64,000 nt of DNA from an uncultured beta proteobacterium (GTDB lineage: Bacteria > Pseudomonadota > Gammaproteobacteria > Burkholderiales > Burkholderiaceae_C): NCBI GenBank assembly GCA_903845935.1, contig CAIMZI010000118.1:1-64000 (forward strand). Direction: 5' to 3'. Below the pieces are notes generated by a model. That model ran no database searches. It had not been told where the DNA came from and was given only the letters and a program-made list of their open reading frames with translations. Below, in pieces: positions 2,250 through 24,815 of this stretch. The number at the start of each line of letters is the position of its first letter. Within the stretch, counting starts at the first letter, position 1. Position numbers and translations under genes: made by a program.

Positions 2250-4124
2250 ATGGCACACACTGAGCTGCGGGAAGACCCCCCTTCTCTGGCTCCACAGGGT
2301 GTCGCTGCCAGAATCTTGCAGGCCTGCCAGCAGGAGTCGTGCTCGCTCTCCACGTTGGCAACTCTGGTGACAGAAGACCCGGTCCTAGGCGCCAGACTGC
2401 GCCGGTTTTGCACCGCAGCCAAGGGGCTGAGTTCGGGCGATCCGATAGGCGATTGCATAGGCCTGCTGGGTGTGACGGCGGTGAAAAATCTGGCGCTGGT
2501 GTTTTCGCTATGGGACCAGCACCGCAACGGCCCCTGTCGGGGTTTTGACTACCGCCGGTATTGGAGCGAAGTGTTGCTGACCTACTTCATCATGATGGAG
2601 ATGCAGGAGGAGGAAACACCGCGCGTGGCCCATGAGACCGGCACCTGGGCGATGCTGTCTAGCCTGGGCTGTCTCGCCCTGGCAACGACCCATCCCCTGG
2701 AATATACCGAGATCTTGGGCTGTGGTGGCGAGTTGGCGGCGCTGGAGGACGCCCGGTTGAACACCAACCATCTGCGCCTGAGCGTGGAACTGTTGACCCC
2801 CTGGGGACTTCCCAGTAGCTTGGCCGGTCGCGTCTTGGCGCAACAGGAGCCGGGCCGGATGGTAGAAGATGGCGCACCCGCCACGTCCTTTGCCGTGGAT
2901 GTCTGGCATTTTTCCTGCCGTACCGCCCGGCAGTTGTGCCAGGCCAAGGAACAAGCCGGCAGCCTGGCGAGTGTGCTGTTTGCCTTTGCCAATGCTTATG
3001 GCAAGTCGCATGCGCAGCTGATCACCAAAATCCAGCAAGCCGTTGCCAAGTCGCTGGCTGCTGCCGAAGCGCTCGGGCTCGAACTCTCGGTCACCTCCGT
3101 GATGCCGCTTGGCAAGCTGCCTGACGGTACGGCTAACAGCGTGGCAGACAGCTGGCTGCGGATTCTGATTGTCGAGGATGACCCGATTGTTCGCACCCTG
3201 TTGGAAACCTGGCTCAAGGTCCAGGTCGGCCATAGCGTGATTTCGGCCGACAACGGAGAGCAGGCGTTGGAGCTGGCACGTCAGCACTTGCCGCAGTTGA
3301 TCATCACAGATTGGAGCATGCCGGTCATGGACGGCATTGCGTTTTGCAAGGCGCTGCGGCAAGCCGATTGGGGCAAGAGTATTTATGTGCTGATGCTCAC
3401 CGCATCCAGCGGCGACGACGACCTGGTGGAAGCCTTTGAGGCCGGCGTGGATGACTTTTTGCTCAAGCCGGTCAAGCGCCAGGCGCTGGGCGCCAGACTG
3501 CAGGCCGCCTGGCGCTATATCCACTTTCGGGAACAATGGCGGCAGGACAATCAACGGTTGGTACATGCCAATGAACAACTGGAGTTGAAGAATCGGCAAC
3601 TGCAACTCCATTCCACAGCCGATACCCTGACCGGGCTACCCAACCGACGCGCCGGTCAGCGGGCACTGACGCAGGCCATGAGTGCGGCGCAACGCCACGG
3701 TTTGCAAATGTGCGTGTTCTGCTTTGATCTGGATTGCATGCAATTGCTGCAGGACAGTGCCGGCCATGTCACGGGCGACGAGATCTTGCAGCTGATAGGG
3801 GTCACGGTGCAACAGACGCTGCGCAATGAAGACACGGTGTGCCGTTGGGGTGAGGATGCTTTCCTGATCATTGCACCAGGAACCGCTGTGGCCGATGGCA
3901 TCAAGGCCGCACAACGATTGCGCGAAGCGGTGGTCGGCCACCTGATCGCGCTGGAATCCAGTTCGATCAGCGTCACCATCCACATTGGCGTGGCCTGCTG
4001 GGATGCGGAGTCCAAAAGCCGGGAGCAGCTCTTGCTTGAGGTGGAGCAGGCCTTGGGCGCGGCCAAGCAGGCGGGGAAAAACCGCATCGCGGTGTTGGTG
4101 GATGAGAGAACGCAGCTTATTTGA
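2250..4124 (+). CDS. HDOD - receiver - degenerate GGDEF signalling protein
   Basis: N-terminal HDOD-like region; REC with ILIVEDDPIVRTLL, IITDWSMPVMDG, LMLTAS, KPVKRQ; C-terminal GGDEF fold with GEDAF at the active site and RNED at the I-site. Confidence 0.8.
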   Translation: MAHTELREDPPSLAPQGVAARILQACQQESCSLSTLATLVTEDPVLGARLRRFCTAAKGLSSGDPIGDCIGLLGVTAVKNLALVFSLWDQHRNGPCRGFDYRRYWSEVLLTYFIMMEMQEEETPRVAHETGTWAMLSSLGCLALATTHPLEYTEILGCGGELAALEDARLNTNHLRLSVELLTPWGLPSSLAGRVLAQQEPGRMVEDGAPATSFAVDVWHFSCRTARQLCQAKEQAGSLASVLFAFANAYGKSHAQLITKIQQAVAKSLAAAEALGLELSVTSVMPLGKLPDGTANSVADSWLRILIVEDDPIVRTLLETWLKVQVGHSVISADNGEQALELARQHLPQLIITDWSMPVMDGIAFCKALRQADWGKSIYVLMLTASSGDDDLVEAFEAGVDDFLLKPVKRQALGARLQAAWRYIHFREQWRQDNQRLVHANEQLELKNRQLQLHSTADTLTGLPNRRAGQRALTQAMSAAQRHGLQMCVFCFDLDCMQLLQDSAGHVTGDEILQLIGVTVQQTLRNEDTVCRWGEDAFLIIAPGTAVADGIKAAQRLREAVVGHLIALESSSISVTIHIGVACWDAESKSREQLLLEVEQALGAAKQAGKNRIAVLVDERTQLI

Positions 4125-4692: not shown

Positions 4693-5083
4693 AGGGTATG
4701 CCGTCGGCGCTGGCACCTGGCGCACCGCTGATGAGGTTGTAAACGCCCGTGCCCTGCGCATCCGGCGGGGACACCAGCACCCAGGAGGTGGAACTTTCGG
4801 CAATCGGATCAAAGGGCAGGGTGCGCAGGTAGCGCTTGCTCACCAACTCATCGAGTTGATCCGGGTAGTGACCGGTATCGGCGTGAAATTTGTCCAGTGC
4901 ATCCCGCGTCGCTGCCAGATTGGCCTTGAGCACGGTCTCCTTGCTGCGCTCTATGGAGCGAAAATAGCGCGGCGCTGCCAGGCTCAACAGCAGGCTGACA
5001 ATGGTCATCACCACCATCAGTTCGATCAGGGTAAAGCCCGAGCGTCTGGCGCGCGAACCTGCTGCTGGCAAGTACATCACCAT
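4679..5083 (-). CDS. Type II secretion pseudopilin (GspG-like)
   Basis: RRSGFTLIELMVVMTIVSLLLSLAAPRYF prepilin motif, DTGHYPDQLDEL. Confidence 0.85.
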   Translation of the reverse strand: MVMYLPAAGSRARRSGFTLIELMVVMTIVSLLLSLAAPRYFRSIERSKETVLKANLAATRDALDKFHADTGHYPDQLDELVSKRYLRTLPFDPIAESSTSWVLVSPPDAQGTGVYNLISGAPGASADGIPYADW

Positions 5084-5571
5084 TCCTTGTAGGGCACGCC
5101 ATTGAGGCCTATGCCTGGCGCTTGCGAGTAGACATCAAACACATCGACGCCGGGCTGTGGCTTGTCGTGCGGACTGGCGTAGCTGCGTAGGCCCCAGATG
5201 CTGGTGCCGGCTTCGGCTGCCACCGTTGCGAAGGGGTCGGCCGGAATACGGCGCAGAAAAATCAGCTTGCTGGCTTGCGACGGACTCTTGGCGTCACTCA
5301 CGCCATCGACCAATATTTCCAGGCTGGGTGGGTAACCCGAGCCCTTGGTGGTCTCGACCACGCGACCCTCATCCACCGCCTGTTTGTAGCTGTCAATCGC
5401 GCTGCGGATCTGGCGCAGTGCCACGCGCAGCTCCTGCTCGTGGCTGCGCCGTTCGGTCAGTTCCAGCAGGGGGAAGGCCACGGTGGACAGCAGACCGACG
5501 ATGGCCACGGTGACCAGCATTTCAATTAGCGTGAAGCCGCGCAGGTGCGGGGCCGAACGGCACAGCCTCAT
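5077..5571 (-). CDS. Type II secretion pseudopilin (GspG/H-like)
   Basis: LRGFTLIEMLVTVAIVGLLSTVAFP prepilin motif; ATG at 5571 overlaps secretin stop; ORF track start is upstream. Confidence 0.85.
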   Translation of the reverse strand: MRLCRSAPHLRGFTLIEMLVTVAIVGLLSTVAFPLLELTERRSHEQELRVALRQIRSAIDSYKQAVDEGRVVETTKGSGYPPSLEILVDGVSDAKSPSQASKLIFLRRIPADPFATVAAEAGTSIWGLRSYASPHDKPQPGVDVFDVYSQAPGIGLNGVPYKEW

Positions 5572-7580
5572 GGTGTGGGCTTCTCTTCCGGCTCCGGCTC
5601 CGGCGCCGCAGCCTGGGCTGGTTGCGTGGCTTCGGGCGCCGTCACCATCGGCGTTTGCAGGGGCACGATTGGCAGCGTACCCATCGCCGTCGGAGCCGCT
5701 GGAGCTGGAGTAGCCGGTGTTGCAGGAGTAGCCGGTGTTGCAGGAGCAGCCGGTGTTGCAGGAGCAGCAGCGGGGTTTGGTGTGGCCAGCGGTGCCCGGG
5801 CGGCCGCAGCGCTGACGGGTGCCTTGGACGCTACGCCCTGGCGTGGTCCAAAGCGCATATTGCTTTCGGTGCCCGACCACATTTCCAGCAGGTCGTTGTC
5901 TATTTGTTTGCTGTTGCGAACAATGCGCGGCGTGATGGAAATGATGACTTCCTTTTTGTTCTTTTCGTCGGTCTGGGTACCAAACAAGCGGCCCAGGATG
6001 GGGATATCGCCGAAGCCCGGAATGCGGGTGGCGCCGGTGCGGTCCTGGTCCTGGATCAGGCCGCCAATGATTTCGGTCTGCCCGTCCTTGAGGCGCAGCA
6101 CCGTGTTCACGCTGCGCGTGCTGATGGTGTAGGCAATGGTGCCGTTTTTGGCCGCGTCCGGGTTCTGGCCGCTGTTGGAGCTGACCTCCAGCGCCAGCCG
6201 GATGGCAACCTCGCCGTCGGCATAAATGGTGGGCTCGACCTCGATCTTGATGCCCACGTCCACATACTGGATGTTGGTGTTGTAGACCGGCGAAGTGGTG
6301 GCCGCTCCCGGCACCGCCGCGGTGGAGATCACCGGCAGGCGGTCGCCGACCAAAAATTTGGCCTTTTCCTTGTTGCGTACGCGGATGCGGGGTGTGGCCA
6401 GGTCGTTGATGTCGGAGTCGGTTTTCTTGGCGTTGATGGCGCCGCTCAAGGGCGAGACATTGACGTCCGCCGAGCTCAGCGCGCGGAACTGTTGCAGCGT
6501 CATGCCGCTGGTGCTGGCGCCAAAGCTGGTGGGCAGGTCAATACCCAGGGCCATCAGCCTGGCATGCGACACCTCCATCACATCCACCTCCAGCATCACC
6601 TCGGGTTCGGGCTGGTCCATGGCGGAAATCAGCTTCTCGATCAGGCGGATGATCTGCGGCGTGTCGCGTACCACCAGGGCATTGGTCTTTTCGTCAATGA
6701 ACATATCCTTGGTCTTGACCATGGTTTTGACCATGGCCATCACGTTCTTGGGGTCGGCATTGGTCATGGAAAAGCGGCGAATCTTGAGCTCGGCGTAATC
6801 GCGCGACTTGGCCTCGGTGTCCGGGTAAATCAAAAACGAGTTCTCGCCCATCACCCGTTTGGCGGTCTGGGTTTGCATCAGGATCAGGTCGATCGCCTCT
6901 TCAACCGGCGTATCGCGCACAAAGATGCTGACCTTCAGGTCGCTCTTGACGTCCTTGTCAAACAGGATGTTCAGGCCGGTGGTGCGGGCAATTGCCTCCA
7001 TCACCATACGCAGATTGGCATCGCGGAACTGCAGCGTCACGGGCTTGCGGCCCTTGAGGTTTAGGCTCACGCCATTGAGCGAATTGTTTTGCGTGGCCTC
7101 GGCAATCTGGGTGCGCAGTTGCTGTGCCCGCGGCTGGGTCGGATTTTCCACCAGCACCCGAGCCAGCAGGTTGGAGGCCTGCTCCAGTTCGCCCTTGCCA
7201 TAGAGCAGGGCGGCCTCATCCAGCCGAGTGGCTTGCTTGCGCTCATGTGTGATGTCATTGATCGCCTGGGCCGCAGCGATATGGCCCGGATCCAACGCCA
7301 GCACCTTGGCATAGCGAGCCTGGGCCAAATCCCAACGCTCCGCCGTTTCGTCGCGCCGGCCCTCTGACATCATCCGCTGGGTGATCTGGTCGCGCTGCAG
7401 CAGCCAGTCCTTCTTGAAGTCTGCATTGCCCGGGTCGGCCAGCTTGGCCTGCGCCAGCTTGCCCAGGCCCTCTTCTATTTTGCCCTCGTCAATCAGGCTC
7501 ACGCCCTCGCGGTGCAGGCGTTCACCGGCGCAGGCCGTCAGTACCAGGGCCAGACAAAAAATGGATAAGGTGCGGAACAT
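5568..7580 (-). CDS. gspD: Secretin (GspD/MshL/PilQ family) lipoprotein with N-terminal TPR-like region
   Basis: Lipobox LTACAGE, secretin N1-like domains, C-terminal NTVLRLKDGQTEIIGGLIQDQDRTGATRIPGFGDIPILGRLFGT. Confidence 0.92.
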   Translation of the reverse strand: MFRTLSIFCLALVLTACAGERLHREGVSLIDEGKIEEGLGKLAQAKLADPGNADFKKDWLLQRDQITQRMMSEGRRDETAERWDLAQARYAKVLALDPGHIAAAQAINDITHERKQATRLDEAALLYGKGELEQASNLLARVLVENPTQPRAQQLRTQIAEATQNNSLNGVSLNLKGRKPVTLQFRDANLRMVMEAIARTTGLNILFDKDVKSDLKVSIFVRDTPVEEAIDLILMQTQTAKRVMGENSFLIYPDTEAKSRDYAELKIRRFSMTNADPKNVMAMVKTMVKTKDMFIDEKTNALVVRDTPQIIRLIEKLISAMDQPEPEVMLEVDVMEVSHARLMALGIDLPTSFGASTSGMTLQQFRALSSADVNVSPLSGAINAKKTDSDINDLATPRIRVRNKEKAKFLVGDRLPVISTAAVPGAATTSPVYNTNIQYVDVGIKIEVEPTIYADGEVAIRLALEVSSNSGQNPDAAKNGTIAYTISTRSVNTVLRLKDGQTEIIGGLIQDQDRTGATRIPGFGDIPILGRLFGTQTDEKNKKEVIISITPRIVRNSKQIDNDLLEMWSGTESNMRFGPRQGVASKAPVSAAAARAPLATPNPAAAPATPAAPATPATPATPATPAPAAPTAMGTLPIVPLQTPMVTAPEATQPAQAAAPEPEPEEKPTP
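5707..5760. repeat. 18-bp tandem repeat, 3 copies, in the Pro/Ala/Thr tail of the secretin gene
   Basis: (GGAGTAGCCGGTGTTGCA) x3 with one T/C variant; encodes ATPATP units. Confidence 0.85.
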
Positions 7581-7594
7581 GGTGGGTCTATGCC

Positions 7595-8137
7595 TCAGGG
7601 GGGAGTAGCCAGGGACTGGGGCGTGCCCAGCGGCAAATAGGTGAACAGCACGCGGGCGGGCTCAATGCGTTCGATGCGGTAGTTGGTTTCAATCACGTCG
7701 CCCTGGGCGGCCGTCAGCACGCGGTTGCCACGCGACAGAATGACCAGCTGCAGGCTGCCTTCGCTGTACTTGCCCAGAAAGACAAAGGGCAGGGCTGGCG
7801 CGGTGGGAGCGGGCGGCGGTGGCGGCGGGCCGGGCGGCGGCGCAGGAGGAGGAGGTGGCGGCGCCAGCACCCAGGTGCTTTGCGCGAACAGTTCGCCGGC
7901 CAGGCCCTCACCGACCGTCGGCCGCTCTGCCGGGACTGTCAGCTGATTGCCCATGACCGCCGGTGGCTGGCGTTCGGCCTGGCCCTGGACCGGACTGCTG
8001 GCGGCAGCCGTGGGCGTCTTGGTGGACTTGACGGCTTCAGACACCGTCGCCGCTTCCTCATGCGGTGCGAACCACAGCAGCAGCGCGGTCAGCACGGCAG
8101 CAGCCAGCATCAGCAGGCGGGGGCGTGTGATGTTCAT
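7595..8137 (-). CDS. Inner-membrane GspC/PilP-like protein with polyproline linker
   Basis: One TM, PPPPPPAPPPGPPPPPPAP linker, C-terminal FVFLGKYSEGSLQLVILSRGNRVLTAAQGDVIETNYRIERIEPARVLFTYLPLG, typical HR/PilP domain. Confidence 0.75.
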   Translation of the reverse strand: MNITRPRLLMLAAAVLTALLLWFAPHEEAATVSEAVKSTKTPTAAASSPVQGQAERQPPAVMGNQLTVPAERPTVGEGLAGELFAQSTWVLAPPPPPPAPPPGPPPPPPAPTAPALPFVFLGKYSEGSLQLVILSRGNRVLTAAQGDVIETNYRIERIEPARVLFTYLPLGTPQSLATPP

Positions 8138-8691
8138 GGTGTGCTATCCACAAACAACACGAAAACCAGCCTGGCATCGACGTTGTCGTCGCTGACCTTG
8201 TCACGCTTAAAGCTGGCGCTTTCCAGTGCCACCGTGTTGTCGGCCTTGAGCGCGCGGTCGACAAAGTTGATCAGCTGCTTGAAGCTGCCCTTGAGCGGCA
8301 GCGCCACGCGAAAGCGCTGCAGCCGCTCGCTGCCCTGGCCCACCAGCGCATAGTCGCCGCTCTCCAGCACCACGCCGCTTTCATCGGCTGCACGGTACAG
8401 CCTTTGCAGGGCCTGCGGTACCTTGGCTGCAGGTGAAAAGCTGCGGTAGAAAAGGTCTAGTTGCTCCTCTTGCGGCAGCACAGAGGCCGCCGGCAGACTG
8501 GTCCGGGTGGCGTCCTGCTGCTGCAGGGCCGCCAAGGTGCGCTCCAGTTGCAGCTGCTCCAAATCGCCCGCATGCAGCAGAAAAATCCAGACCGCCAGAG
8601 CCGCCAATAGCAGCGCCAGCCCGGCGCAACCCGTTACGCCGAGTTGTGCGGCACGGTATTGCAGTTGGCGTTGTAGTGCGATGCGGTTCAT
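8134..8691 (-). CDS. PilO/GspM-like secretion protein
   Basis: Single N-terminal TM, coiled-coil, ferredoxin-like C-terminus; overlaps neighbours by 4 nt; real start ATG 8691 inside ORF 8134..9267. Confidence 0.65.
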   Translation of the reverse strand: MNRIALQRQLQYRAAQLGVTGCAGLALLLAALAVWIFLLHAGDLEQLQLERTLAALQQQDATRTSLPAASVLPQEEQLDLFYRSFSPAAKVPQALQRLYRAADESGVVLESGDYALVGQGSERLQRFRVALPLKGSFKQLINFVDRALKADNTVALESASFKRDKVSDDNVDARLVFVLFVDSTP

Positions 8692-9374
8692 GGGGCGGTA
8701 CTCCGCTTGGAGCTCAGGTGCAAACGGGTGTCGCTCAGGGACTTGGCCAGGCGCAGTTGCACCGGGCGCTCCACGCTGTCCAACGGCTTGGGCTCGGCGC
8801 GAACCACGGCGGGCGGCGGGTTGCTCACGGCTGCCGGCCTTGTTTCTGTGGTACTCCACTTGGCGCTGAGGCGGAACCGGATCGGCTTTTCTGGCAGGGC
8901 GCGGTTGATGAGGTGTGACTGCAGCGTCACTCCGGAGAAGCCCGCGCTGTCCTGCAGGGTGGCTACAAATTTCAACATGGCGCCCATGTCGCGCGCCTCG
9001 GCCAAGACCACCAGTTGGCCTTTTTGTGCATCGGGCTCGACGCTGATCAGTGCCACGCGGCTCTCTGCTGCGGTCTGTCCCAGCGACAGGAAAAAGCGGC
9101 TCCAGGGCAGATTGAGTTGTTGTGACACGGTTTGCGCGCGTTGCCAGGCGATTGTCATTTCGGCCGGCTTCATGCGAGCGACCGGCAGCTGGCTGCCCAT
9201 GCGCGCACGTTGCTCCTGCACCTCTTGGCGCGCCGCGAGTAACTGCGGTGCGCTGACCAGCTGCCATTGCGCCAGTGTGCCAAACAGGCAGGCCGTGCCC
9301 AGCAGCGCCATGGCCCAGCGCAGCAGTTGGCGGCCCCGGCTTGGCGCGACCAGGTCGAAGTAAAGGCTCTTCAT
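8688..9374 (-). CDS. PilN/GspL-C-like secretion protein
   Basis: Short cytoplasmic N-terminus, TM, periplasmic domain; position between PilM-like and PilO-like genes. Confidence 0.65.
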   Translation of the reverse strand: MKSLYFDLVAPSRGRQLLRWAMALLGTACLFGTLAQWQLVSAPQLLAARQEVQEQRARMGSQLPVARMKPAEMTIAWQRAQTVSQQLNLPWSRFFLSLGQTAAESRVALISVEPDAQKGQLVVLAEARDMGAMLKFVATLQDSAGFSGVTLQSHLINRALPEKPIRFRLSAKWSTTETRPAAVSNPPPAVVRAEPKPLDSVERPVQLRLAKSLSDTRLHLSSKRSTAP

Positions 9375-10165
9375 GCCGTCAGCCCGCCGATGGCTGGCAA
9401 GGCCGAGTCCAGCACCACCAGACGCAGGCCGGTGGCGTTCAGGCCCGTGGTTGCGTTCAGGCCCGGTGCGTGCAGATAGACCTGGACCGGTGCCTCAGCC
9501 GTCGCTGCCAGACCTAGTAGCTTGAGCTCGCGCCGAAAAAATGCCAGCAGCGCCTGGGTCGTGGGTAGGCTGATCTGCTGCGAATGCACGCGGTTCCAAC
9601 CATCCAGGTTCCAGCTGCCCCAGCTAACCCGGTCTGCTTCCCAATGGATCAGCCAGGCCTCGTCTGCCAGGTGCTTGCGGTGTGAGCGCAGCGCCGAGCT
9701 AAAGGCCGTGCTAATCGAGGTCACCGGTGGCAGGGTGCCCGCGCAGCGTGCGTGCAGCAGGTCCAGCAGCGACTGCGGAATCGCCACCGACAGGCGCGCC
9801 GCACCGGGCGCATCCTGGGTGAATGCGAAGTGCCATCCGGCACTGGACTGGGCGCCATAGACATCGTCAAATTGCAGCATCGCCAGGGCACAGTCTTCCT
9901 GGTGGTTGCGCAGCTGCGCCTGCCAGGGGGCACAGGCATAGCGCACCAGTCCGTCCGACAGAATCACGCGGGTTTGCTGGTAGCGTGCGGTTTTAGTCAG
10001 ACTAGCGCAGGCATCGCTCAGTCCTTGCCAGCCGTCGGCGGCGTGGACCGCCACGGCCACCGCTGGCAGCGCCGTGCGGCGGCGCCGCCAGCCACTACAG
10101 GCGACGGCGCGCACGCCCTGGGGCGACACCTGCAGCGTCAATACATCAGGCAATAAAAGTGACAC
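9371..10165 (-). CDS. PilM/GspL-N-like actin-fold secretion protein
   Basis: Position and overlap with gspE and pilN-like genes; weak sequence motifs only. Confidence 0.5.
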   Translation of the reverse strand: MSLLLPDVLTLQVSPQGVRAVACSGWRRRRTALPAVAVAVHAADGWQGLSDACASLTKTARYQQTRVILSDGLVRYACAPWQAQLRNHQEDCALAMLQFDDVYGAQSSAGWHFAFTQDAPGAARLSVAIPQSLLDLLHARCAGTLPPVTSISTAFSSALRSHRKHLADEAWLIHWEADRVSWGSWNLDGWNRVHSQQISLPTTQALLAFFRRELKLLGLAATAEAPVQVYLHAPGLNATTGLNATGLRLVVLDSALPAIGGLTA

Positions 10166-13031: not shown

Positions 13032-13451
13032 TTATTCCCAGCTGACGATGTCTGCGTCTTCGCCGGTGCCGCCGGCCACGCCGTCGCGACCAAAGGAGAT
13101 GATGTCGTATTCGCCGTGGCTGCCGGGGCGCTTGTAGGTATAGGCGTTGCCCCAAGGATCGGTGGGCACGCCCTTCTTTAGGTAGGGGCCGTCCCAGCGC
13201 GCCTCATCCGCGGGCTTGGCACCCAGCGCCGCCAGGCCTTGTTCGGTCGTGGGGTAGTGGCCGGTGTCCAAGCGATACTGGTCCAGCGCCTTACCAAAGG
13301 ACTCGATTTGTGCCTTGGTGACCTTAACCTCCGACTTGCCGACCTGCTTGAAATACATGGGCGCCACATAGCCCACCAGCAGGCCGATGATGACCATCAC
13401 CACCAGCAGTTCGAGCAGCGTGAAGCCGCGATTATTTTGCTTGCGTGTCAT
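13032..13451 (-). CDS. gspG: Major type II pseudopilin GspG
   Basis: NRGFTLLELLVVMVIIGLLVGYVAP, LDTGHYPTTEQGLAAL, DPWGNAYTYKRPGSHGEYDIISFGRDGVAGG. Confidence 0.95.
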   Translation of the reverse strand: MTRKQNNRGFTLLELLVVMVIIGLLVGYVAPMYFKQVGKSEVKVTKAQIESFGKALDQYRLDTGHYPTTEQGLAALGAKPADEARWDGPYLKKGVPTDPWGNAYTYKRPGSHGEYDIISFGRDGVAGGTGEDADIVSWE

Positions 13452-15257: not shown

Positions 15258-17081
15258 TCAGGGCACGATCCAGTCGGAGATCGCTTCGAGTGTATGTGCG
15301 GGGCCGGGCGCCAGGCGCACGATATAGGCGCCGCGCGAGGCATAACGCTGGCCGGGGCCCAACGTCAAGTGCGGATAGATGGTGGTGCCTTCGCTGATTC
15401 CCACGCCAAAGGCCCGGCGCTGAGCGCCCTCGGCATTGAGCGCGTCCGGTACCGCCGTGCCACTCAGGCTTTCGCTCTTCACCGCCACACGGCCCAGGCG
15501 GCCCAGTGTCTGGCGATCGCGGCTTTCTTGCCAGGCCTTGGCGCTTTCGCGCTTGCCCAACATGTCCTCGGTGCGCTCCATCAGGTAGTCGCGGTACAGG
15601 TTGTCCAGCATGTCCTGCAAGGTGTCGGTCATCAGATTCAGTGAGAAAAACAGTTCCGACTGCAGCACTTCGTCAACCAGCGGAATGTTGCGCAGCTTGA
15701 GCCAGGCATGCAGATAGGCCAGGTTGGCGGCGCGCTCTTGCGGCAGCTGGTAGGGATAGATGCCGTGCAGCACCGGCTGCCAGGCAGCAGGCACGGTGGA
15801 CCAGGCCGCGTCTTGCCCCAGCGTGCTGGAGGCATAGAACTGCACTCCCTGGGGCGGCGTCAGCATCTCCAGCAGTGGCCACTGCGCAGGGCTTAGCCAC
15901 AGGGCCACGGCGTCACCCGCATGGGTGGCCTGAAGGGCTTTGCGCAGGCTGACCAAGGCCTGGGCCGGGTCGGCACTGAGTGCCACGTCTTGCAAGGCAT
16001 GGCCTTTGGGCAGCCAGGCCTGGCGCAGTTCCGTGGCAGCGGCCCGGGCGGCTGCGTTGTCTGCCGAAACCACCTGAACCATCTGCCGCACGGGTGCAGC
16101 GTCGGCCAGGTAGCTGGCCAGCACGTCGGCTTCAAGTGCCACACCGCGCGAGAAATACAGCCCGTATTGCGCATCGCCCGCTGTGGCCAAGGCCACGCTG
16201 GGAAACCAGCAGGGCAAGGCCTGGCTGCGACAAAACGCATCCACCGGCGCCCAGTTGGAGTCCGACAGGCCCGACAGCAGCGCGAACACCGGTGTGGCGG
16301 CATAGTGCGCATTCAGTTGGGCGCCCCAGGTGTCGGCGCTGCCGCTGAGCTCCCAGACCTGCACGTCCCAGTGCCGCTCGGTTTGGGTGGCAAAGCTGGC
16401 GGCTGCGGCCATGTGGCGCTTGCGCGGCGCGGTGCTGCTGTTTTTGGAGGCCAGGGCCGACTGCAGCATGGACTTGAAAACACTGCGGCGTGCTTCGCTG
16501 ACCTCGGGGGTGATCACGGTGGCAAAGCGAATCACATCCTTGCCAACGCCGGGCGAGTATTCGGAGGACAGCTGCTGCAGGTAGCTGCGCAAGGCTTGCA
16601 GCTCGGACGGCTGCAGTGTGAAGTGCGGCATGACATCGCTGACCTGGCGGCCTGCGGGACTGATGCCATCCTGTAGCAGGTGGCCCAGGGTCGCCTCGGT
16701 ATAACCCGACAGGCCCCGGTTCAGGGTTTTGCCGCGGCGTCCGTCTACATTGGCCATCACCAGATCGTCGGCCTGTCCAAATAAATAACGCTGGCTGATG
16801 GGGGGCACGCGCGCCTGCCCCTCCACACTGCCCATGCCGCTGGCGCGGTGGCAGTTGGTACAGGCCGCGTCGCGTCCGCTCAGGGCCGCGCCGCTGTTGC
16901 GCGTGGCCTGCAGGGCTGCACCGGATGCCAGGCGGCCCTCCACGTAAATAAGCCGCCCCTGTTCCACCAGATCAGGCTGCAACGCCGTGTCGGGCAATGC
17001 CGCCGCAGCGCACACGCCGCCCAGAAAGCTGGCCAGCAGCAGGCAGGCGCGCAGGCCGACAGGAAACAGGGAGATGGACAT
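15258..17081 (-). CDS. Secreted c-type cytochrome fused to periplasmic-binding-protein-like domain (MofC-like by position)
   Basis: Signal peptide, single heme motif CTNCH with GMGSVEGQARVPPIS; long C-terminal region resembling a type 1 periplasmic binding fold. Confidence 0.75.
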   Translation of the reverse strand: MSISLFPVGLRACLLLASFLGGVCAAAALPDTALQPDLVEQGRLIYVEGRLASGAALQATRNSGAALSGRDAACTNCHRASGMGSVEGQARVPPISQRYLFGQADDLVMANVDGRRGKTLNRGLSGYTEATLGHLLQDGISPAGRQVSDVMPHFTLQPSELQALRSYLQQLSSEYSPGVGKDVIRFATVITPEVSEARRSVFKSMLQSALASKNSSTAPRKRHMAAAASFATQTERHWDVQVWELSGSADTWGAQLNAHYAATPVFALLSGLSDSNWAPVDAFCRSQALPCWFPSVALATAGDAQYGLYFSRGVALEADVLASYLADAAPVRQMVQVVSADNAAARAAATELRQAWLPKGHALQDVALSADPAQALVSLRKALQATHAGDAVALWLSPAQWPLLEMLTPPQGVQFYASSTLGQDAAWSTVPAAWQPVLHGIYPYQLPQERAANLAYLHAWLKLRNIPLVDEVLQSELFFSLNLMTDTLQDMLDNLYRDYLMERTEDMLGKRESAKAWQESRDRQTLGRLGRVAVKSESLSGTAVPDALNAEGAQRRAFGVGISEGTTIYPHLTLGPGQRYASRGAYIVRLAPGPAHTLEAISDWIVP

Positions 17082-17788
17082 TAGCGCTGTGCCGGGGTAG
17101 TGCCCAACAGTTCAATGTCATATACCAGCAGCTCGTTGGGGCCAATGTCACTGCCGACACCGCGCTCACCGTAGCCCATGTTGGGCGGGATCCAGAGTGT
17201 CCAGTGCGAACCCACGTTCATGTGCTGTATGCCGGCACGCAGGCCGTTGAACAGATCGTAGAGTTTGGTCGTGCCAGCCTTGCCTGGCTCGGTGGCATCA
17301 AACTGTGTGCCGTCCAGCAGCGTGCCGCGGTATTTGATTTGCACCGTGTCGGAGTCCAACGGCAGCGGACCTTGACCGGCCTGAAGCACCTTGTACTGCA
17401 GGCCGCCAGGAAGGGTGACGACGCCGTCACGGCTCTTGTTGGACTGCAAAAATTCTTCCGCTTTTTTGCGGTTTTCAAAGCTCAGGGCGCGCAGATTGAC
17501 TGAGGTCTTTTGCCGCATCTGGAGCTGAAATTCTCCAATGACCTTGCGAAATTCTTTTTCGGACAGTTGCGCGCGAATGCCTGCCAACCCATCCTGCATG
17601 CCCCGCATCACCATGTCGGGATCCAGTGGCACATCGCCCTTCTTGAAGTTGCGCGCCACGTCCATGCCTATGGCATAGCTCAGCTTGTCCTGCTCGCGCA
17701 GTGGCTGGCCTTGTTCGGCATGTACCACCATCGCTACCAGCGCCATCACCAGCGTGGCCCACGTTCTAAACCTATTCATCACTTTCAT
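17081..17788 (-). CDS. FKBP-type peptidyl-prolyl cis-trans isomerase (MofB-like by position)
   Basis: IKYRGTLLDGTQFDATEPGKAGTTKLYDLFNGLRAGIQHMNVGSHWTLWIPPNMGYGERG; FkpA-like N-terminus. Confidence 0.88.
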   Translation of the reverse strand: MKVMNRFRTWATLVMALVAMVVHAEQGQPLREQDKLSYAIGMDVARNFKKGDVPLDPDMVMRGMQDGLAGIRAQLSEKEFRKVIGEFQLQMRQKTSVNLRALSFENRKKAEEFLQSNKSRDGVVTLPGGLQYKVLQAGQGPLPLDSDTVQIKYRGTLLDGTQFDATEPGKAGTTKLYDLFNGLRAGIQHMNVGSHWTLWIPPNMGYGERGVGSDIGPNELLVYDIELLGTTPAQR

Positions 17789-17818
17789 CCCTCACCATTC
17801 TTTGTTCTATTTTAAAGA

Positions 17819-17857: not shown

Positions 17858-17867
17858 ACTTACACAT

Positions 17868-20800
17868 TTACTTCAAAGAGCCCTTGGCTACGGTCAGCGT
17901 TGCTCCTGCTGTCGAGTTACCGACTGCGTTGGCCGCACGTACCCGGAAGTACGCTGCCGAAGTAGGCGCTGCCGGTGAAGTCGTACCCCGTGCTACTGCG
18001 GTAAACGTTGCCGTTTGCGTACCGCTCAAGGTGGTGCCGGTTGGGACCGTCACTGTCTGCGTCACCAGACCGGTGGTAAAGCCGGTGTTGGTTGCGTAGT
18101 CAATGTAGAAGGTCGTTACCGGTTGGCCATTCACCGTGTTGGCAACAGGGGTCCATTTCACCGCTACCGTGTCGGTGGCCAAGCTCGCCGTGTTCAGCGT
18201 CGCAGTGCCCAAAGTCGGCGCCACCGGTGTGGCCGGCACGGTGTTGACCACCGTGGTGCTGGTGCCAGCTGCCGACAGGCCGGTCAGATTGACCGCCTTA
18301 ACGTTGAACGCGTAGCTGCTACCGACCGCTGTTGTCGCCGTGTAGCTCGTTGCTGTTGCAGCCAGCGGCGTCGCATTCAACAGCGTGGTGCCGTTGTACA
18401 CGTTGTAGCCGGTAATCGCCGGTGCATTGGCAGCCACCGTCGTTTGCGTCCAGTTCACTGTGGTCGAAGTCGGGCTGACAAAGGTGGCAGTGGGTGCTGC
18501 TACCGTTGTTGGCACGGTGTTCGACATCACGATGGCGTTAGACGCCGCCGACAGACCAGCCAGATTCACCGCCTTGATGGTGAAGTTGTAGCTATTGCCA
18601 GCTGCAGTCGTTGCCACGTAGGACGTCGCGCTGGCTGCCAGTGGCGTTGCGTTCAGCAGGGTGGCTCCGTTGTACACGTTAAAGCCCGTCACCGCCGGGT
18701 TGCCCGCAGTTGCCGCCTCGGCCCAAGCCAGGGTCACGGAAGTGCCTGAGGTAAAGCTTGCAGCGGCTTGCACCGGCGCGGCCTGAACCAGGTCAGCCAC
18801 CGAGCGGGTGTTCGAGTCCGCACTGCTGCCGATCAAGTTGACTGCACGCACCGAGAACACATAGCTGTTGCCAGCGACGGTGGTCACGGTGGCCGAGGTG
18901 GCTGTGGCTGCTGTGTTAGCACCCATTTGCACTGCGGCGGCTCCGTTCACCGAAGCCCAGATCTGGTAGGCGGTGACTGCAGGTGCCGTGGCAATCGCGG
19001 CTTCAGACCAGGTCACGACGGTTGCCGTGGCACTGCTCATCACTGCGCTGGCCAGCACCGGAGCGGCTTGCACCACCAGGTTGGCGGTCGTCGTAGCAGT
19101 TGCTGCAGAGGCACCCACCACGTTCATCGCCAGCACGGTGTAGTTATGCACTCCAGGCACCGTGGTGTCGGTGTAGGTCACAGCGCCCTTGGCGGCGGTG
19201 GTGATCAAGGTTCCATCGCGGTAGACCTGGAAGCCAGTGACGGCCGGGCCTGCATTGACGGTCTCGGTCCAGTTCAGTTTCACCGTAGGTGCGGCTGCTG
19301 TGCCAGCGATCACCGATGCTGCCATCACCGGTGCGGCTTGCACGATGTAGGCGGCGCTCTGTGTGGCCGATGGAGAAGAGCTCACCACCACGCTGCCAAT
19401 GGTTTGCGTTGCGATGATGCGATAGAGGTAGGTCGTGCCTGCCACCACCGATGCATCGGCAAAACTCACCACCGTGCGGCTGGCCGTCGTACCCACCTGG
19501 GTCCAGCTCACACCGTTGTCAGCAGAACGCTGCACGGCATAGCCGGTCACTGGAGCGGCACTGGCTACCCAGGTCACCGACACAGAGCCGGCGGAGATCA
19601 CCGGCGCAGCAGTAAACGCGGGCACTGCAAGTATCGTTGCCACGGCCACGGAAACCGTTGCGGGCAGCGACTTGTTGATCGGGCCGTTGGACGCTGTGAC
19701 CTTGTAGGTGTAAGCGCTGCTGGATGCCACGGTGGAATCCACATAGCTGGCTGTCGTCACGGTGCTGGAGAGCACGGTGAATACGCTGGATGCGTTGGTG
19801 CAATTGGCGTTGAGTGCCGATTGCAGGCAACGGGTCACGGTGTAGGAGGTCACCGTGCCTGCCGCCGGAGCGGTCCACGACAGAGCTACCGTCGAACCAG
19901 CCTGTGCACCGCTCAGAGCCGCGATGGCACCAGCGGGCGCATAGGGGGTGGTCACCGTGGCCGACGACGCGGCGCCGACGTTGGGACCATTGACCCACTG
20001 CACGCTATAGGTGTAGCTGGTGTTGGCCGCAGCGGTGGCATCCACATAGCTGGTGGTCACGCCTGCAGGCACTGCCAGGGTCACCGTGGTGGTGCCGTTG
20101 GTGCGCTTGATGACGTAGCCCGTGGTCGAGCTGCCGACCGGCTGCGCAGGCCAGCTGACCGTCACCGAGGTGGCGCTGGTTGCAGCCAGGCTCACCGCAC
20201 CGATGGCCGGTGGCAGGGCGTAGGCCGCCAAAATCGTGACCGACTTGGATGCGCCCACGCTGGTTCCGTTAAGCACCTGCACCGCATAGCTGTAGGTATG
20301 ACCCGCAACCGTGGAGTTATCCAGGTAGGTGGTGACCGGAGCCGTGATGGTGCCCGACAGCGGGTTGATCACCTGCGTGACCTGGAACGTGGCTGGCGCC
20401 GCTGGCACCAGAGGAGACACCGATACATCGGTGCGCACGATCTGGTAGGACGTGACGAAGGTCGCGCCCGGTGCCACCCAGTTCAGCTGCACGGCTGCGC
20501 CGTTCAGCGTGCTGGCGGTCGGGTTGGCCGTCATTGCCGGAGCCGGAGCCCAGTCGGTGTTGACCACCACCTGGGTGGATGCGCCTTGCTGCGTGCCATT
20601 CATGCCGACGATCGAGTAGGTGTAGGTGGAGATTTGCTGCACGCCCGGATCGGTAAAGGTGGTTGCATTGCCCGCCACATTGAAGCTCACCGGCAGCGTT
20701 GCCGTTCCATTGGCCGTGAAGCCGCCGGTACGGGTGATGACATAGCCGCTGGCTGGTTGGGTAGCCGAAGTCCAGCTCAGTGTGACCGGGAAGCCGCCGA

Positions 20801-23800
20801 TGATGGCGGTCTGGCCGGTGGCCACGACCTCATTCACCGTGGGGTTCCAGGCTCCGATGCTGGCAGCCATGGCGTTCACCGCACCGGGTGCGCCTGCCGT
20901 GGCCGAGGCCACGGAATAGCCCGACGAGTTGAAGGCCACCACGCGGTACTCGGTGGTTCCTACTGGTGCGACCAGGTCGGTCCAGGAGGTGGAGTTGGCA
21001 GCCGCCACCGTGGGCATTGCGTTACCAGGGTTTTGAGTGGTCTGTGCCGCGCTTTGCGGAATCGTAGCGGGCAGGGTCGGCGTGGTCCAAACACCGTTGA
21101 CGATGTTGGAGTTCCAGGTTCTGCCACCGTCGTCCGAACGCTGGACCAGGAAGCCCAGTTCGTTCTTCTTGTTGCCGGGCGTCGCCACGCCAAAGGCATC
21201 CACACCACCGGCCGGTGTCGGGTCGGTCCAGGTCACGGTCTGGGTGCCGGGGTTGAAGGCAATACCGCTTACCGCGTCCGGCACGACTGCGCCGAAGTTG
21301 AAGGAGATGACGCGCATGAAGTCGTTTTCTTCGTGGCCGAGGATGTGGCAATGCCAGATGTATTCCCAGTCGAAGTTGTGCATTTCATTGACCACGGTGG
21401 TGGCCAGACCGGTGGTTGGGTCCAACTGGCTGAAGCCAGTGGACACGCCCAGGGGTTGCGTCGGATCCAGCGCACGCACCGATTGCGGCACGCCAAACGG
21501 CGCCTTGGGAGTCTTGGGCTTGACGGCCACATAGACGTCTTCCAGCGGGTTCATCTTGACGGTTTCTTTCCAGCCGAATTCGGCCGGATCAAGCGCTACG
21601 ACGGTGCCGTCCCAGCCCACGCGGTTGACAACCTGCACATTGAACAGGTGGAAGTGCACGACGTGGGTGTCCACGCCGTTGTGCGTGACCTTCCAGATCT
21701 GGGTCTCGCCGTCGGCGATTTGTTCGGTCGGAGGATCGACATAGCCCACTGGAATAGTGGTCTGCGTCAGCACCGAGGTGTAGGGAAGTTCGACCGAGAA
21801 GGTCGCGTTCATGCGGCCATAGTTCTGGTCAAACAGTTCCTGAATGCCCTTGTTTTGCACCTTCCAGGATTGCGTGGTGTTGGTGATGACCGAGGCGGCG
21901 GCACCGATACCACCGGTGTTGGTGCCCGCTGCACCATTGGTCAGAACCACCGAGGGGGCGCTGATGTAGGGTCCACCGGCGCTGTCCAGAACGATGCTTT
22001 GCAGGCGCTGACCGGCCACGTCGATCACCGCATGTGCGGTGCCAGCGACGGCATTGGGGAATGCAGGATCCAATCCACCCACCAGGGTGACTGTGGGAGC
22101 GGTGGTGTAGCCCGTGCCCTGGCTGTCCACGGAGAAGCCGGTAACGATCTGCGCGCCGGGAGGCGAGAAGCTGAAGTTGGGCTGCTGCGTGGTACCGGCA
22201 TAAATGCGTCCCAGGTTGTCCTGGAAGGTCTTGCCATAGGCGGCGCTCTGCCAGGATTCCGTAACGATAGGCGCATCTTGAGAGGCGGCAAAGGCTGCGG
22301 GCAGGGCCGTGACGAAAGGTCCGCCTTGTTGTGCGGTCAGGTTATTGGAGTTGAGAACCGGGTCAAGCGCTGCTGCGGGAGCTGCACCATTGAACTGCTT
22401 GGCAGCCACGTTGATGCGCATGATGGTGCGCGTGTTGGGACCTTGGCCTGGCAGGGTAGTGGGCGCACCACCGGAGCCGGTCTGGTCGGCATCGCCGGTG
22501 TAGTAGTCGACGCGGGCGTCAAAGCCTGGGTTGGGAGCCGGGCAGTCGTTGTACAGGATGATGGTCTTGCCAGCGTACTGCGAGAAGTCGATGACAAAGT
22601 CGGCGCGCTCGGCCGGGCCAAGGTACAGGCCGTGGTCCAGCACGTTGAGCACGGTGACGATGCGGCGCAGTTGCTGATAGGACACCGGAGTCGACGGGAT
22701 CACGTTGGGCACGGCCAGGAAGCCACCCTCGGTGCCGATCTGGATGATGTTCGGACCTGCAGCCTTCGGATCAGGAATGCCACCTGGGCGACCGTCGTAG
22801 GTGTTCTGCGAATAGTAGGCAATGCTGCCATCGGGGTTGAAGCTGTTGCCCACTGTTGGCAGGCTGGACGTGATGTTGCCCGGCAGGCTGGCTGCAACCA
22901 TCGGCACTTCGGTGTTGACCGACACGACTAGGCTGGCGCCGGAGCCCGGAGTGGCGGCCGGATCGTTCAAGGTGACGACGGGCGCGGTGGTGTAGCTCAA
23001 TGTCTTGCCGGCCGGTGCCGTGACGCTGACAGCAGCAATGCTGCCGTCGATGGAGCTGATGGTCAGAGCGATGTTGGGCACTACGCCGTTGTCATCGGCT
23101 GCCGCGACTGCGGTGGTGGTAGCCGAGTAACCGGTGCCGCCATTGGAGATGCCAATGGACAGGGGCTCGGCCACATACAGACCCAGATTGACATAGCGCT
23201 GGCCGTCGGCATTGAGCATGCGGAAGCGGTAGGACTTGGGCTCGACATTCAGCTTGGGGTATGCCACGCCGTTGATCAGAGGGGTGTCGGCATAGGCTTC
23301 TTGCACGGCACTGACGTTGTCCACGTCACCGGCCGGCAGGGCCAGGGGCGCGGGGAACACCGGCCAGAACCAGGGACCGTAATCCCAGCGACCGGCGGGG
23401 TTGGTGCCGTCGATGGAGTTGGGGTTCTGGTTGGTTTCATACACGTGGGGGAACCACAGGTCACCATAGGTGCCCCAGCGCTGCTTGGCGTTGCCAGCAG
23501 CGTCCGTATTCCACTTGGCATCTTCGATCTTGATGTCCTTGGGAACGAAGGTTTTGGTTTCGTAGATCAGCGGAATTTCATCCATGCCGGCCAATGCGCC
23601 GGGGATATTGACCATGGCGCCGCTGACGGCCTTGACCGTTGCACCGCCGGCCGTCTTCAAAGCGGCTTCGGTTGCGTCGTGAATCATGAAGGCCGAGACA
23701 ATGCCGGCATAGACGTTGATGCGGGTGGCTGCGTAGCTGTGGTCGTGGTACCACTCCATGCGCGAGCTTTGGTTGTTCGGGTAGTAATAGGTTTGTGTGC

Positions 23801-24815
23801 CGGCGCCGTAGTCGGGCATATCGGGCACGTTTTGCGTGGTTTCTCCGCGCAGGTAAGGGGTGCCGGTTTCGCCCGCTGGCGTGATCCAGGAGTGGGGTTG
23901 GCCGTCAGAGATCCAGGGCGTGTCGCCGCCGTGCAGGTGAATCATGGCACGGTTCTGGGAATACAGTTCGGTGGGCAGGGGCGCCAGCGGATTGGCCGAG
24001 CCCAAGGGGCCCAGGCCAGCGCCAGGCACGGTCACATCGGTGGGGATAAAGATGTCGCCGCCGCGGGTGTTGGTCAGCGGGTCAAAGCGGCCGGTGGGCA
24101 GGTAGTTGTCGAACTTCAGGCGTACAGGAACACCGGACTGGCTGTCGATGATGGGGCCCAGGTAATGTGGCTTGTCGCCCACGCCAAAAACGATTTGGCC
24201 CTGGTTGTCCAGCACCGGGGTGCCGTCGAGGTAGAAGAGCTGGTATTTGGGTGTGCTGGAAGGCAGGTTGGCGGTCCAGATCTGCACATAGCCGCGCAGC
24301 GCGGTGCCGCCGGTGACGGCATTGCCGGTTTTGACCACGGCAGGCAGGTCGGGGTGCAACTGTTCACGGTACTCGACCACGGCGATTTCATAGTAGTCGG
24401 CATCCGGAAAGCTCACGGAATGCGCAGGCGACAGGGCCACTTCCTTGACGGCCGTGGGAATGTGCTTGCCCAGCAGGCTGGGATTGGCGGCCAGCAGGGC
24501 AGGGTTCACGGTGTAACCGTCGACCATGGGCAGGTTGTCGACAAACTTGCGCAGTGCGGTGCCGGTGTCGCGCGTGGCGCCGGGAGCAGCATTGGGGCTG
24601 TAGTCGATCTGAATGCCTTGCGGGCTGTTGGCAAAAAAGGTGCCTTGCTTGAAGGGGTTGCCGGCCTTGTCGGTGTTGTCGGCCCAGCCGGCACCGGCCA
24701 GCGCTGCCGGTGCAAACGCGGCGCCAGAAAGCAGCAGTCCCAGGGTGATGCAGGCATTGGCCACAGGCCGAAGTGCCGACTTTTGGAATCGACTACGTGG
24801 TTGATAAAGTTTCAT
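17868..24815 (-). CDS. Giant secreted multicopper oxidase with C-terminal Fn3-like repeats; MofA-like candidate Mn(II) oxidase
   Basis: Four copper motifs: IHLHGG, EWYHDHSYA, THVVHFHLF (HxxHxH), WHCHILGHEENDFM (HCHxxxHxxxxM); signal peptide; about 11 Fn3-like units after the cupredoxin part. Confidence 0.9.
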   Translation of the reverse strand: MKLYQPRSRFQKSALRPVANACITLGLLLSGAAFAPAALAGAGWADNTDKAGNPFKQGTFFANSPQGIQIDYSPNAAPGATRDTGTALRKFVDNLPMVDGYTVNPALLAANPSLLGKHIPTAVKEVALSPAHSVSFPDADYYEIAVVEYREQLHPDLPAVVKTGNAVTGGTALRGYVQIWTANLPSSTPKYQLFYLDGTPVLDNQGQIVFGVGDKPHYLGPIIDSQSGVPVRLKFDNYLPTGRFDPLTNTRGGDIFIPTDVTVPGAGLGPLGSANPLAPLPTELYSQNRAMIHLHGGDTPWISDGQPHSWITPAGETGTPYLRGETTQNVPDMPDYGAGTQTYYYPNNQSSRMEWYHDHSYAATRINVYAGIVSAFMIHDATEAALKTAGGATVKAVSGAMVNIPGALAGMDEIPLIYETKTFVPKDIKIEDAKWNTDAAGNAKQRWGTYGDLWFPHVYETNQNPNSIDGTNPAGRWDYGPWFWPVFPAPLALPAGDVDNVSAVQEAYADTPLINGVAYPKLNVEPKSYRFRMLNADGQRYVNLGLYVAEPLSIGISNGGTGYSATTTAVAAADDNGVVPNIALTISSIDGSIAAVSVTAPAGKTLSYTTAPVVTLNDPAATPGSGASLVVSVNTEVPMVAASLPGNITSSLPTVGNSFNPDGSIAYYSQNTYDGRPGGIPDPKAAGPNIIQIGTEGGFLAVPNVIPSTPVSYQQLRRIVTVLNVLDHGLYLGPAERADFVIDFSQYAGKTIILYNDCPAPNPGFDARVDYYTGDADQTGSGGAPTTLPGQGPNTRTIMRINVAAKQFNGAAPAAALDPVLNSNNLTAQQGGPFVTALPAAFAASQDAPIVTESWQSAAYGKTFQDNLGRIYAGTTQQPNFSFSPPGAQIVTGFSVDSQGTGYTTAPTVTLVGGLDPAFPNAVAGTAHAVIDVAGQRLQSIVLDSAGGPYISAPSVVLTNGAAGTNTGGIGAAASVITNTTQSWKVQNKGIQELFDQNYGRMNATFSVELPYTSVLTQTTIPVGYVDPPTEQIADGETQIWKVTHNGVDTHVVHFHLFNVQVVNRVGWDGTVVALDPAEFGWKETVKMNPLEDVYVAVKPKTPKAPFGVPQSVRALDPTQPLGVSTGFSQLDPTTGLATTVVNEMHNFDWEYIWHCHILGHEENDFMRVISFNFGAVVPDAVSGIAFNPGTQTVTWTDPTPAGGVDAFGVATPGNKKNELGFLVQRSDDGGRTWNSNIVNGVWTTPTLPATIPQSAAQTTQNPGNAMPTVAAANSTSWTDLVAPVGTTEYRVVAFNSSGYSVASATAGAPGAVNAMAASIGAWNPTVNEVVATGQTAIIGGFPVTLSWTSATQPASGYVITRTGGFTANGTATLPVSFNVAGNATTFTDPGVQQISTYTYSIVGMNGTQQGASTQVVVNTDWAPAPAMTANPTASTLNGAAVQLNWVAPGATFVTSYQIVRTDVSVSPLVPAAPATFQVTQVINPLSGTITAPVTTYLDNSTVAGHTYSYAVQVLNGTSVGASKSVTILAAYALPPAIGAVSLAATSATSVTVSWPAQPVGSSTTGYVIKRTNGTTTVTLAVPAGVTTSYVDATAAANTSYTYSVQWVNGPNVGAASSATVTTPYAPAGAIAALSGAQAGSTVALSWTAPAAGTVTSYTVTRCLQSALNANCTNASSVFTVLSSTVTTASYVDSTVASSSAYTYKVTASNGPINKSLPATVSVAVATILAVPAFTAAPVISAGSVSVTWVASAAPVTGYAVQRSADNGVSWTQVGTTASRTVVSFADASVVAGTTYLYRIIATQTIGSVVVSSSPSATQSAAYIVQAAPVMAASVIAGTAAAPTVKLNWTETVNAGPAVTGFQVYRDGTLITTAAKGAVTYTDTTVPGVHNYTVLAMNVVGASAATATTTANLVVQAAPVLASAVMSSATATVVTWSEAAIATAPAVTAYQIWASVNGAAAVQMGANTAATATSATVTTVAGNSYVFSVRAVNLIGSSADSNTRSVADLVQAAPVQAAASFTSGTSVTLAWAEAATAGNPAVTGFNVYNGATLLNATPLAASATSYVATTAAGNSYNFTIKAVNLAGLSAASNAIVMSNTVPTTVAAPTATFVSPTSTTVNWTQTTVAANAPAITGYNVYNGTTLLNATPLAATATSYTATTAVGSSYAFNVKAVNLTGLSAAGTSTTVVNTVPATPVAPTLGTATLNTASLATDTVAVKWTPVANTVNGQPVTTFYIDYATNTGFTTGLVTQTVTVPTGTTLSGTQTATFTAVARGTTSPAAPTSAAYFRVRAANAVGNSTAGATLTVAKGSLK

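What the first reader, a model, noticed from the sequence alone, without database searches (positions are those of the whole stretch)
4117..24815. Candidate metal-oxidation and dedicated-secretion locus: MofA-like oxidase, PPIases, cytochrome c, SCO chaperone and a compact T2SS
Seen: one minus-strand run encodes a giant multicopper oxidase, FKBP PPIase, c-type cytochrome, second FKBP PPIase, small exported protein, SCO1-like protein, then GspG-F-E, PilM/N/O-like, GspC-like, secretin and three more pseudopilins. Known: the Leptothrix discophora mof operon is mofA (multicopper oxidase), mofB (FKBP PPIase), mofC (heme c protein), in this order; in Geobacter the multicopper protein OmpB depends on the T2SS pseudopilin OxpG. 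Inference: this is a self-contained module that folds (PPIases), metallates (SCO), exports (T2SS) and wires electrons from (cytochrome) an extracellular Mn(II)/Fe(II) oxidase. The link between the mof-type genes and a full secretion apparatus may be undescribed.
Basis: partly seen in the sequence, partly recalled or inferred. Interest (0 to 1): 0.93.

Follow-up and report, generated by a model that had tools for sequence, protein, structure and literature searches.

The report
Metal-oxidase operon fused to T2SS
A freshwater bacterium carries one tight 17-gene run that encodes a giant copper oxidase of the putative manganese/iron-oxidising kind, its folding and copper-loading helpers, and a complete secretion machine, and the same pairing recurs in several branches of related bacteria, so the machine very probably exports the oxidase.

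Summary
One minus-strand run (24815 to 4117) encodes a MofA-type multicopper oxidase with all copper ligands, two periplasmic FKBP isomerases, a MofC-type cytochrome, a small exported protein, SCO, and a compact type II secretion system (T2SS: GspG-F-E, PilM/N/O, GspC, secretin, three pseudopilins).

For: 18 of about 30 MofA-bearing betaproteobacterial genomes have this T2SS type within about 10 kb of mofA, in four arrangements. Linked T2SSs are not one clade (AU p 4e-38), so the pairing arose repeatedly. In 60 congeners all seven MofA carriers have the T2SS, against two of 53 others. SCO sits 5' of the first T2SS gene in all 11 window-clade loci and in none of 40 T2SS loci sampled without regard to MofA.

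Against: the T2SS type occurs in about 140 of 399 genomes of the order, nearly all without MofA, so it is a general chassis recruited by MofA, not a MofA invention. Its peptidase lies elsewhere.

mofABC, SCO in mof clusters, and secretion of the homologue OmpB by an atypical T2SS are published. I found no report of the physical, recurrent mof-T2SS linkage. The metal substrate is unproven.

The parts
25595..27136 (-). PAS-HisKA_3 sensor kinase, upstream of the regulator; likely regulates mof
   Evidence: Pfam; position only for the regulatory role
24956..25582 (-). LuxR/NarL-type response regulator; a 75% identical one precedes the 84% identical mofA in L016/L212
   Evidence: Pfam
17868..24815 (-). 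MofA-type multicopper oxidase, 2315 aa, Sec-type signal peptide, all 12 Cu ligands, fibronectin-III tail
17081..17788 (-). MofB-type periplasmic FKBP peptidyl-prolyl isomerase
   Evidence: Pfam FKBP_N/FKBP_C; signal peptide read from sequence
15258..17081 (-). MofC-type c-type cytochrome (one CTNCH) with a type-1 periplasmic-binding domain
14551..15237 (-). second FKBP isomerase; first gene of the FKBP2-exported-SCO-T2SS module
   Evidence: module seen apart in L020
14071..14526 (-). small exported protein (151 aa), conserved next to SCO in window-clade loci
   Evidence: no Pfam hit
13453..14067 (-). SCO1/SenC copper chaperone (TSCTAVC motif)
   Evidence: Pfam
13032..13451 (-). GspG major pseudopilin
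   Evidence: TIGR01710 175 bits, over cut-off
11831..13024 (-). GspF inner-membrane platform
   Evidence: Pfam T2SSF; below the TIGR02120 cut-off
10146..11834 (-). GspE/PilB-type assembly ATPase
   Evidence: Pfam T2SSE and MshEN; scores equally to GspE and PilB models
9371..10165 (-). PilM/GspL-cyto-like actin-fold protein
   Evidence: AlphaFold model and Foldseek to 5eq6/1yf5
8688..9374 (-). PilN-like membrane protein
   Evidence: position, TM helix, conservation
8134..8706 (-). PilO/GspM-like membrane protein
   Evidence: position, TM helix, conservation
7595..8137 (-). GspC-like proline-rich protein
   Evidence: position, conservation; no Pfam hit
5568..7580 (-). secretin, lipobox (LTAC) and N-terminal TPR
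   Evidence: Pfam Secretin, Secretin_N, STN, TPR; lipobox read from sequence
5077..5574 (-). pseudopilin
   Evidence: N_methyl, TIGR02532
4679..5083 (-). pseudopilin
   Evidence: N_methyl, TIGR02532
4117..4677 (-). atypical pseudopilin without Glu+5
   Evidence: sequence; orthologues follow the other pseudopilins in relatives

Best explanation
This is an operon that makes, matures and exports a surface multicopper oxidase of the MofA/OmpB family. Proposed mechanism: apo-MofA crosses the inner membrane by Sec; the two periplasmic FKBPs fold it and SCO supplies copper; the folded holo-enzyme is pushed through the lipoprotein secretin by the GspG pseudopilus, powered by GspE on the PilM/N/O-GspF platform; the fibronectin tail holds it at or near the cell surface, where it oxidises an extracellular metal, Mn(II) or Fe(II); MofC takes part in electron transfer or sensing. 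The T2SS is a widespread betaproteobacterial chassis that has repeatedly been placed beside mofABC. In the window's lineage it travels with SCO and appears specialised for this cargo. Shown here: gene content, linkage, recurrence, co-occurrence. Inferred: export of MofA by this T2SS, copper loading by SCO, metal substrate.
For: Gene set and tight spacing. T2SS of this type near mofA in 18 MofA genomes, in same-strand downstream, same-strand upstream, divergent and convergent arrangements; chance expectation is about 0.6% per genome. Linked T2SSs are not one clade, while the window's MofA, 80-86% identical to that of L016-L019, is paired there with a different T2SS lineage. Genus test: MofA in 7 of 60, all 7 with the T2SS type, 2 of 53 others. 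In an order sample of 399 drawn without regard to MofA, the one other MofA genome has its T2SS about 9 kb away. SCO directly 5' of gspG/gspF in all 11 window-clade loci, 0 of 40 other T2SS loci. Published: OmpB needs the OxpG/Pul T2SS (cited in PMC3543383 and PMC5566968), and Geobacteraceae MofA genomes carry the homologous GspF-E-PilN-O-C-D-pseudopilin cluster.
Against: About 138 of 140 T2SS-bearing genomes of the order sample lack MofA. Eleven or twelve MofA genomes show no T2SS beside mofA in the contigs held, including Leptothrix discophora and Sphaerotilus. My prediction for congener G780 failed: MofA present, but only a 45% GspF. No promoter or terminator evidence for a single transcript. 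No direct evidence of metal oxidation; MofA-bearing Sphaerotilus is reported not to oxidise Mn (PMC13386937).
Confidence: 0.68

Rival explanations
1. General-purpose T2SS: the secretion genes are a housekeeping exporter with many cargoes, and mofABC sits beside it only because secreted-protein genes drift next to exporters; MofA may use any T2SS in the cell.
For: T2SS type in about 140 of 399 genomes with very varied neighbours: 125 Pfam families among 88 neighbouring ORFs, none in more than 4. The genome of Rubrivivax A210 has several such T2SSs.
Against: Within the genus the window-clade T2SS occurs only in MofA genomes, and SCO is embedded in that clade's run even where MofA lies on another contig (L165, L174, L204).
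Confidence: 0.22
2. The run serves MofA, but the enzyme is not a Mn/Fe oxidase for gain: it could be a copper-handling, phenol- or humic-oxidising laccase, or work as OmpB does in metal-oxide reduction.
For: Nearest solved structures are CotA laccase and bilirubin oxidase. Mn oxidation by MofA is described as putative in the papers read; OmpB is needed for Fe(III) oxide reduction; Sphaerotilus has mofA without Mn oxidation.
Against: mofA is among the top expressed genes in iron mats of L. ochracea (PMC11412304), and carriers here include Fe oxidisers (Ferriphaselus, Ferrigenium).
Confidence: 0.35
3. The pseudopilin-like genes and PilM/N/O make a type IV pilus rather than a secretion pseudopilus.
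For: GspE scores equally to PilB and GspE models (497.7 against 493.6 bits, both below cut-off), and PilM/N/O replace GspL/M.
Against: GspG passes the T2SS equivalog cut-off (175 against 88.9 bits), there is no PilT/PilA/PilY1 in the run, and the Geobacter relatives act as a T2SS in published work.
Confidence: 0.06

Closest known systems
mof operon of Leptothrix discophora SS-1 and its relatives (Rubrivivax sp. A210, Ferriphaselus R-1, Gallionellaceae KS)
   Same: mofA-mofB-mofC order and domain content; SCO and a small exported protein in the same cluster are already described for A210 (PMC8218464) and SCO for FeOB (PMC5566968)
   Different: The window run adds a second FKBP and a whole T2SS. 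A210 and Ferriphaselus also have the T2SS beside mof, but the papers read do not mention it
Geobacter sulfurreducens OmpB with the OxpG/Pul atypical T2SS (Mehta et al. 2006, as cited in PMC5566968 and PMC3543383)
   Same: MofA-family oxidase with fn3, MofC- and SCO-type neighbours, secretion by a T2SS homologous to this one (GspF 28-34%, GspE 48-59%)
   Different: In the Geobacteraceae loci examined the T2SS is not near the oxidase
Xcm Gsp-related pathway of Pseudomonas putida GB-1 (de Vrind et al. 2003)
   Same: A T2SS-like system needed for secretion of a Mn-oxidising factor
   Different: Homology with the window T2SS was not testable here; the full paper is not in the library, and Pseudomonas uses MnxG/McoA
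Canonical T2SS (Gsp/Xcp)
   Same: Major pseudopilin, platform, ATPase, secretin
   Different: PilM/N/O in place of GspL/M, no recognisable GspK, no peptidase in the cluster, GspE/F/D below the NCBIfam T2SS cut-offs

Membership tests
MofA/OmpB multicopper oxidases | four copper motifs (12 ligand positions) in a protein over 1000 aa | tested here: met
MofA/OmpB multicopper oxidases | homology of the oxidase domains with a Leptothrix MofA | tested here: met
   40-42%, E 5e-115 against L. discophora CCM 2812; strain SS-1 itself was not available
MofA/OmpB multicopper oxidases | Mn(II) oxidation | not testable with these tools
   needs assay
mof operon | order mofA, mofB (FKBP), mofC (cytochrome c) | tested here: met
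   MofC 41%, FKBP 41-46% to L056
T2SS | GspG over the equivalog cut-off with ATPase, platform and secretin in one cluster | tested here: met
canonical T2SS | GspE, GspF and GspD over the canonical T2SS equivalog cut-offs | tested here: not met
   497.7/630, 266/424, 195/351 bits: an atypical T2SS
T2SS | prepilin peptidase available | tested here: met
   one PF01478 gene in the genome, beside a pilC-like gene on contig C103
OxpG/Pul-type T2SS of Geobacteraceae | homologous cluster GspF-E-PilM/N/O-C-D-pseudopilins | tested here: met
   L185-L189; used as outgroup in the tree
Xcm system of P. putida | orthology of components | not tested
dedicated MofA secretion system | secretin or ATPase mutants lose surface MofA | not testable with these tools
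   needs mutants

The most novel reading that the evidence does not exclude
A lineage of atypical T2SS has become a dedicated exporter of copper oxidases, with its copper chaperone built into the secretion operon so that metallation and export are coupled; such exporters were recruited beside mofABC independently at least three or four times.
Probability: 0.45. Interest if true: 0.75.

Novelty: new variant of a known kind. Interest (0 to 1): 0.62.

Why it matters
How MofA, a long-known putative metal oxidase, reaches the cell surface, and whether it oxidises Mn or Fe, have stayed open. A conserved, repeatedly formed link to one T2SS type names the likely exporter and maturation factors, ties the betaproteobacterial Mn/Fe oxidisers to the Geobacter OmpB work, and gives cultivable strains (Rhodoferax lacus, Rubrivivax sp. 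A210, Ferriphaselus R-1) in which single deletions would decide the matter.

Tried and rejected
Two GspD surveys of the family failed on the server but counted as searches; GspF was used instead because its orthologues (about 240 bits and above) separate cleanly from PilC and canonical GspF (172 bits and below). Looked for a constant alternative cargo beside MofA-less T2SS clusters: none. Considered that linkage reflects one ancestral cluster inherited vertically: rejected by the T2SS tree (AU p 4e-38). Considered MofA as Tat cargo: no twin-arginine motif read in the signal peptide. Terminators or promoters inside the run: none above chance. The secretin beside L. discophora mof is alone, not a T2SS cluster. 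A pattern search for a regulator site gave nothing. Literature searches for mof plus T2SS gave only the Geobacter/Pelobacter and P. putida precedents.
Full report
OBSERVATION. The window is contig 118 of a 3.9 Mb, 134-contig genome. On the minus strand, from 24815 down to 4117, lie 17 genes that overlap or are separated by 1-79 bases, read from the ORF table. Pfam and NCBIfam assign the oxidase, two FKBPs, cytochrome, SCO, GspG, GspF, GspE, secretin and pseudopilins. MofA keeps all twelve copper-ligand positions and matches L. discophora MofA at 40-42% over its oxidase domains. The PilM-like protein, which has no Pfam hit, models as an actin-like PilM/EpsL fold. MofC models as a c-type cytochrome segment plus a type-1 periplasmic-binding domain (the model is of modest confidence), which agrees with the description of MofC-like proteins in PMC5566968. 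Upstream lie a PAS histidine kinase and a LuxR-type regulator. The only prepilin peptidase of the genome is elsewhere.

SURVEY FROM MofA. A scan of one genome per species (GTDB 220) with a five-member MofA alignment gave 78 loci. Mechanical annotation against the window's proteins, with further stretches fetched around GspF hits, shows this T2SS type within about 10 kb of mofA in 18 betaproteobacterial genomes: the window; L013, L021, L023, L027, L032, L042 and L101 (downstream, same strand); L033, L036, L054, L057, L061 and L121/L206 (same strand, T2SS upstream or nearby); L020 and L048/L099 (divergent); L017 and L018/L175 (convergent). No adjacent cluster was seen in the contigs held for L019 (contig end), L022, L024, L025, L029, L034, L035, L041, L052, L056, L059 and G776. 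Three of these have a lone piece: gspG beside mofA in Ca. Ferrigenium straubiae (L025), whose T2SS cluster elsewhere shows no gspG (L166), and a lone secretin in Leptothrix and Sphaerotilus (L056, L059). MofA loci outside Betaproteobacteria show no linked cluster, but the Geobacteraceae among them carry the homologous T2SS elsewhere in the genome.

SURVEY FROM THE T2SS. GspF of this type separates cleanly from other GspF/PilC proteins. In 399 genomes of the order about 140 have it (the count was made by hand from the table), but only the window's genome and G690 have a true MofA. In G690 the two lie about 9 kb apart. Of 40 T2SS loci fetched from that sample, none had MofA or SCO inside the fetched stretch; in one of them, L121 of G690, mofA lay just outside it. 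Their neighbours are diverse.

GENUS TEST. Among the first 36 genomes of the genus, the MofA carriers and the carriers of a GspF of at least 57% identity were the same five (Fisher 2.7e-6). I wrote down a prediction for 24 more: G776 and G780 positive, 22 negative. G776 was positive (67%) and all 22 were negative, but G780 had only a 45% GspF, so the prediction was met in 23 of 24. For the T2SS type as a whole: 7 of 7 MofA carriers against 2 of 53 others (Fisher 9e-8, no correction for kinship).

HISTORY. In a GspE+GspF tree of 79 loci the window falls in a 99-supported set of 10 loci, all from MofA genomes. The Rubrivivax/Leptothrix/Comamonadaceae loci form a second such set, Gallionellaceae loci a third mixed with MofA-less ones, and Methylotenera stands apart. 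Linked loci as one clade are rejected. The window's MofA is 80-86% identical to MofA of L016-L019, yet L018 and L019 have T2SSs of the second set (GspF 41-43%). The same oxidase lineage has thus paired with two T2SS lineages. The window run looks like two modules joined head to tail: mofABC, and FKBP2-exported protein-SCO-T2SS; in L020 the same two modules are divergent.

MECHANISM. A Sec-type signal on MofA, the FKBPs and SCO (read from sequence) places folding and metallation in the periplasm, and T2SSs export folded proteins (established knowledge). Homologous OmpB depends on an atypical T2SS in Geobacter (cited in PMC3543383 and PMC5566968). Hence export of holo-MofA through this T2SS is the best reading. 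That SCO loads MofA is inferred from its place directly 5' of the first T2SS gene in all window-clade loci. The metal remains open: MofA is a putative Mn oxidase, is highly expressed in iron mats (PMC11412304), and occurs in Sphaerotilus, which is reported not to oxidise Mn (PMC13386937).

LIMITS. ORFs were called mechanically; many loci are draft MAGs; trees are quick ones without bootstrap; co-occurrence tests ignore kinship; the MofA scan kept the best 80 of 118 hits, so counts are lower bounds; the open-access library lacks the 2003 and 2006 primary papers.

Noticed in passing
L014:5167-10059, L021:4462, L022:2392, L023:6812, L024:4303, L028:14762, L032:4404, L048:9818, L013:1569, L058:5007, L218:2321: A single well-supported clade (100 SH-aLRT) of MofA paralogues that have lost 8-10 of 12 copper ligands with conserved replacements (HVQRNHSGSAHT in place of HHHHHHHHCHHM), mostly in tandem with an intact MofA: a conserved copper-less partner, possibly a scaffold or substrate-binding subunit.
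   Followed up: partly
L056:19018-20877 and L059:18806-20698 (minus strand): In Leptothrix discophora and Sphaerotilus mobilis a lone GspD-type secretin (34-35% identical) sits convergent to mofABC-sco, while the T2SS cluster with its own secretin is elsewhere.
   Followed up: partly
L025:7760-8209 and L166: In Ca. Ferrigenium straubiae a gspG lies beside mofA while the T2SS cluster roughly 180 kb away shows no gspG, as if the major pseudopilin had moved to the cargo operon; in Methylotenera L033 gspG likewise lies at the end of the mof run.
   Followed up: partly
L112:3911-7717, L113:12788-15931, L117:12038-15730: Very large ORFs (1000-1270 aa) beside MofA-less T2SS clusters of the same type, candidate cargoes; astacin and ricin-type lectin domains recur among such neighbours.
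   Followed up: no
window 2250-4124 (+) and 30491-33262 (-): The run is flanked by c-di-GMP signalling genes (HDOD-receiver-GGDEF; PAS-GGDEF-EAL), and GGDEF/receiver proteins often lie near related T2SS clusters.
   Followed up: no
window 24816-24955: The 140-base gap between the regulator and mofA holds the repeat ACCGGTttACCGGT (two copies of a palindromic hexamer), a possible regulator site.
   Followed up: no
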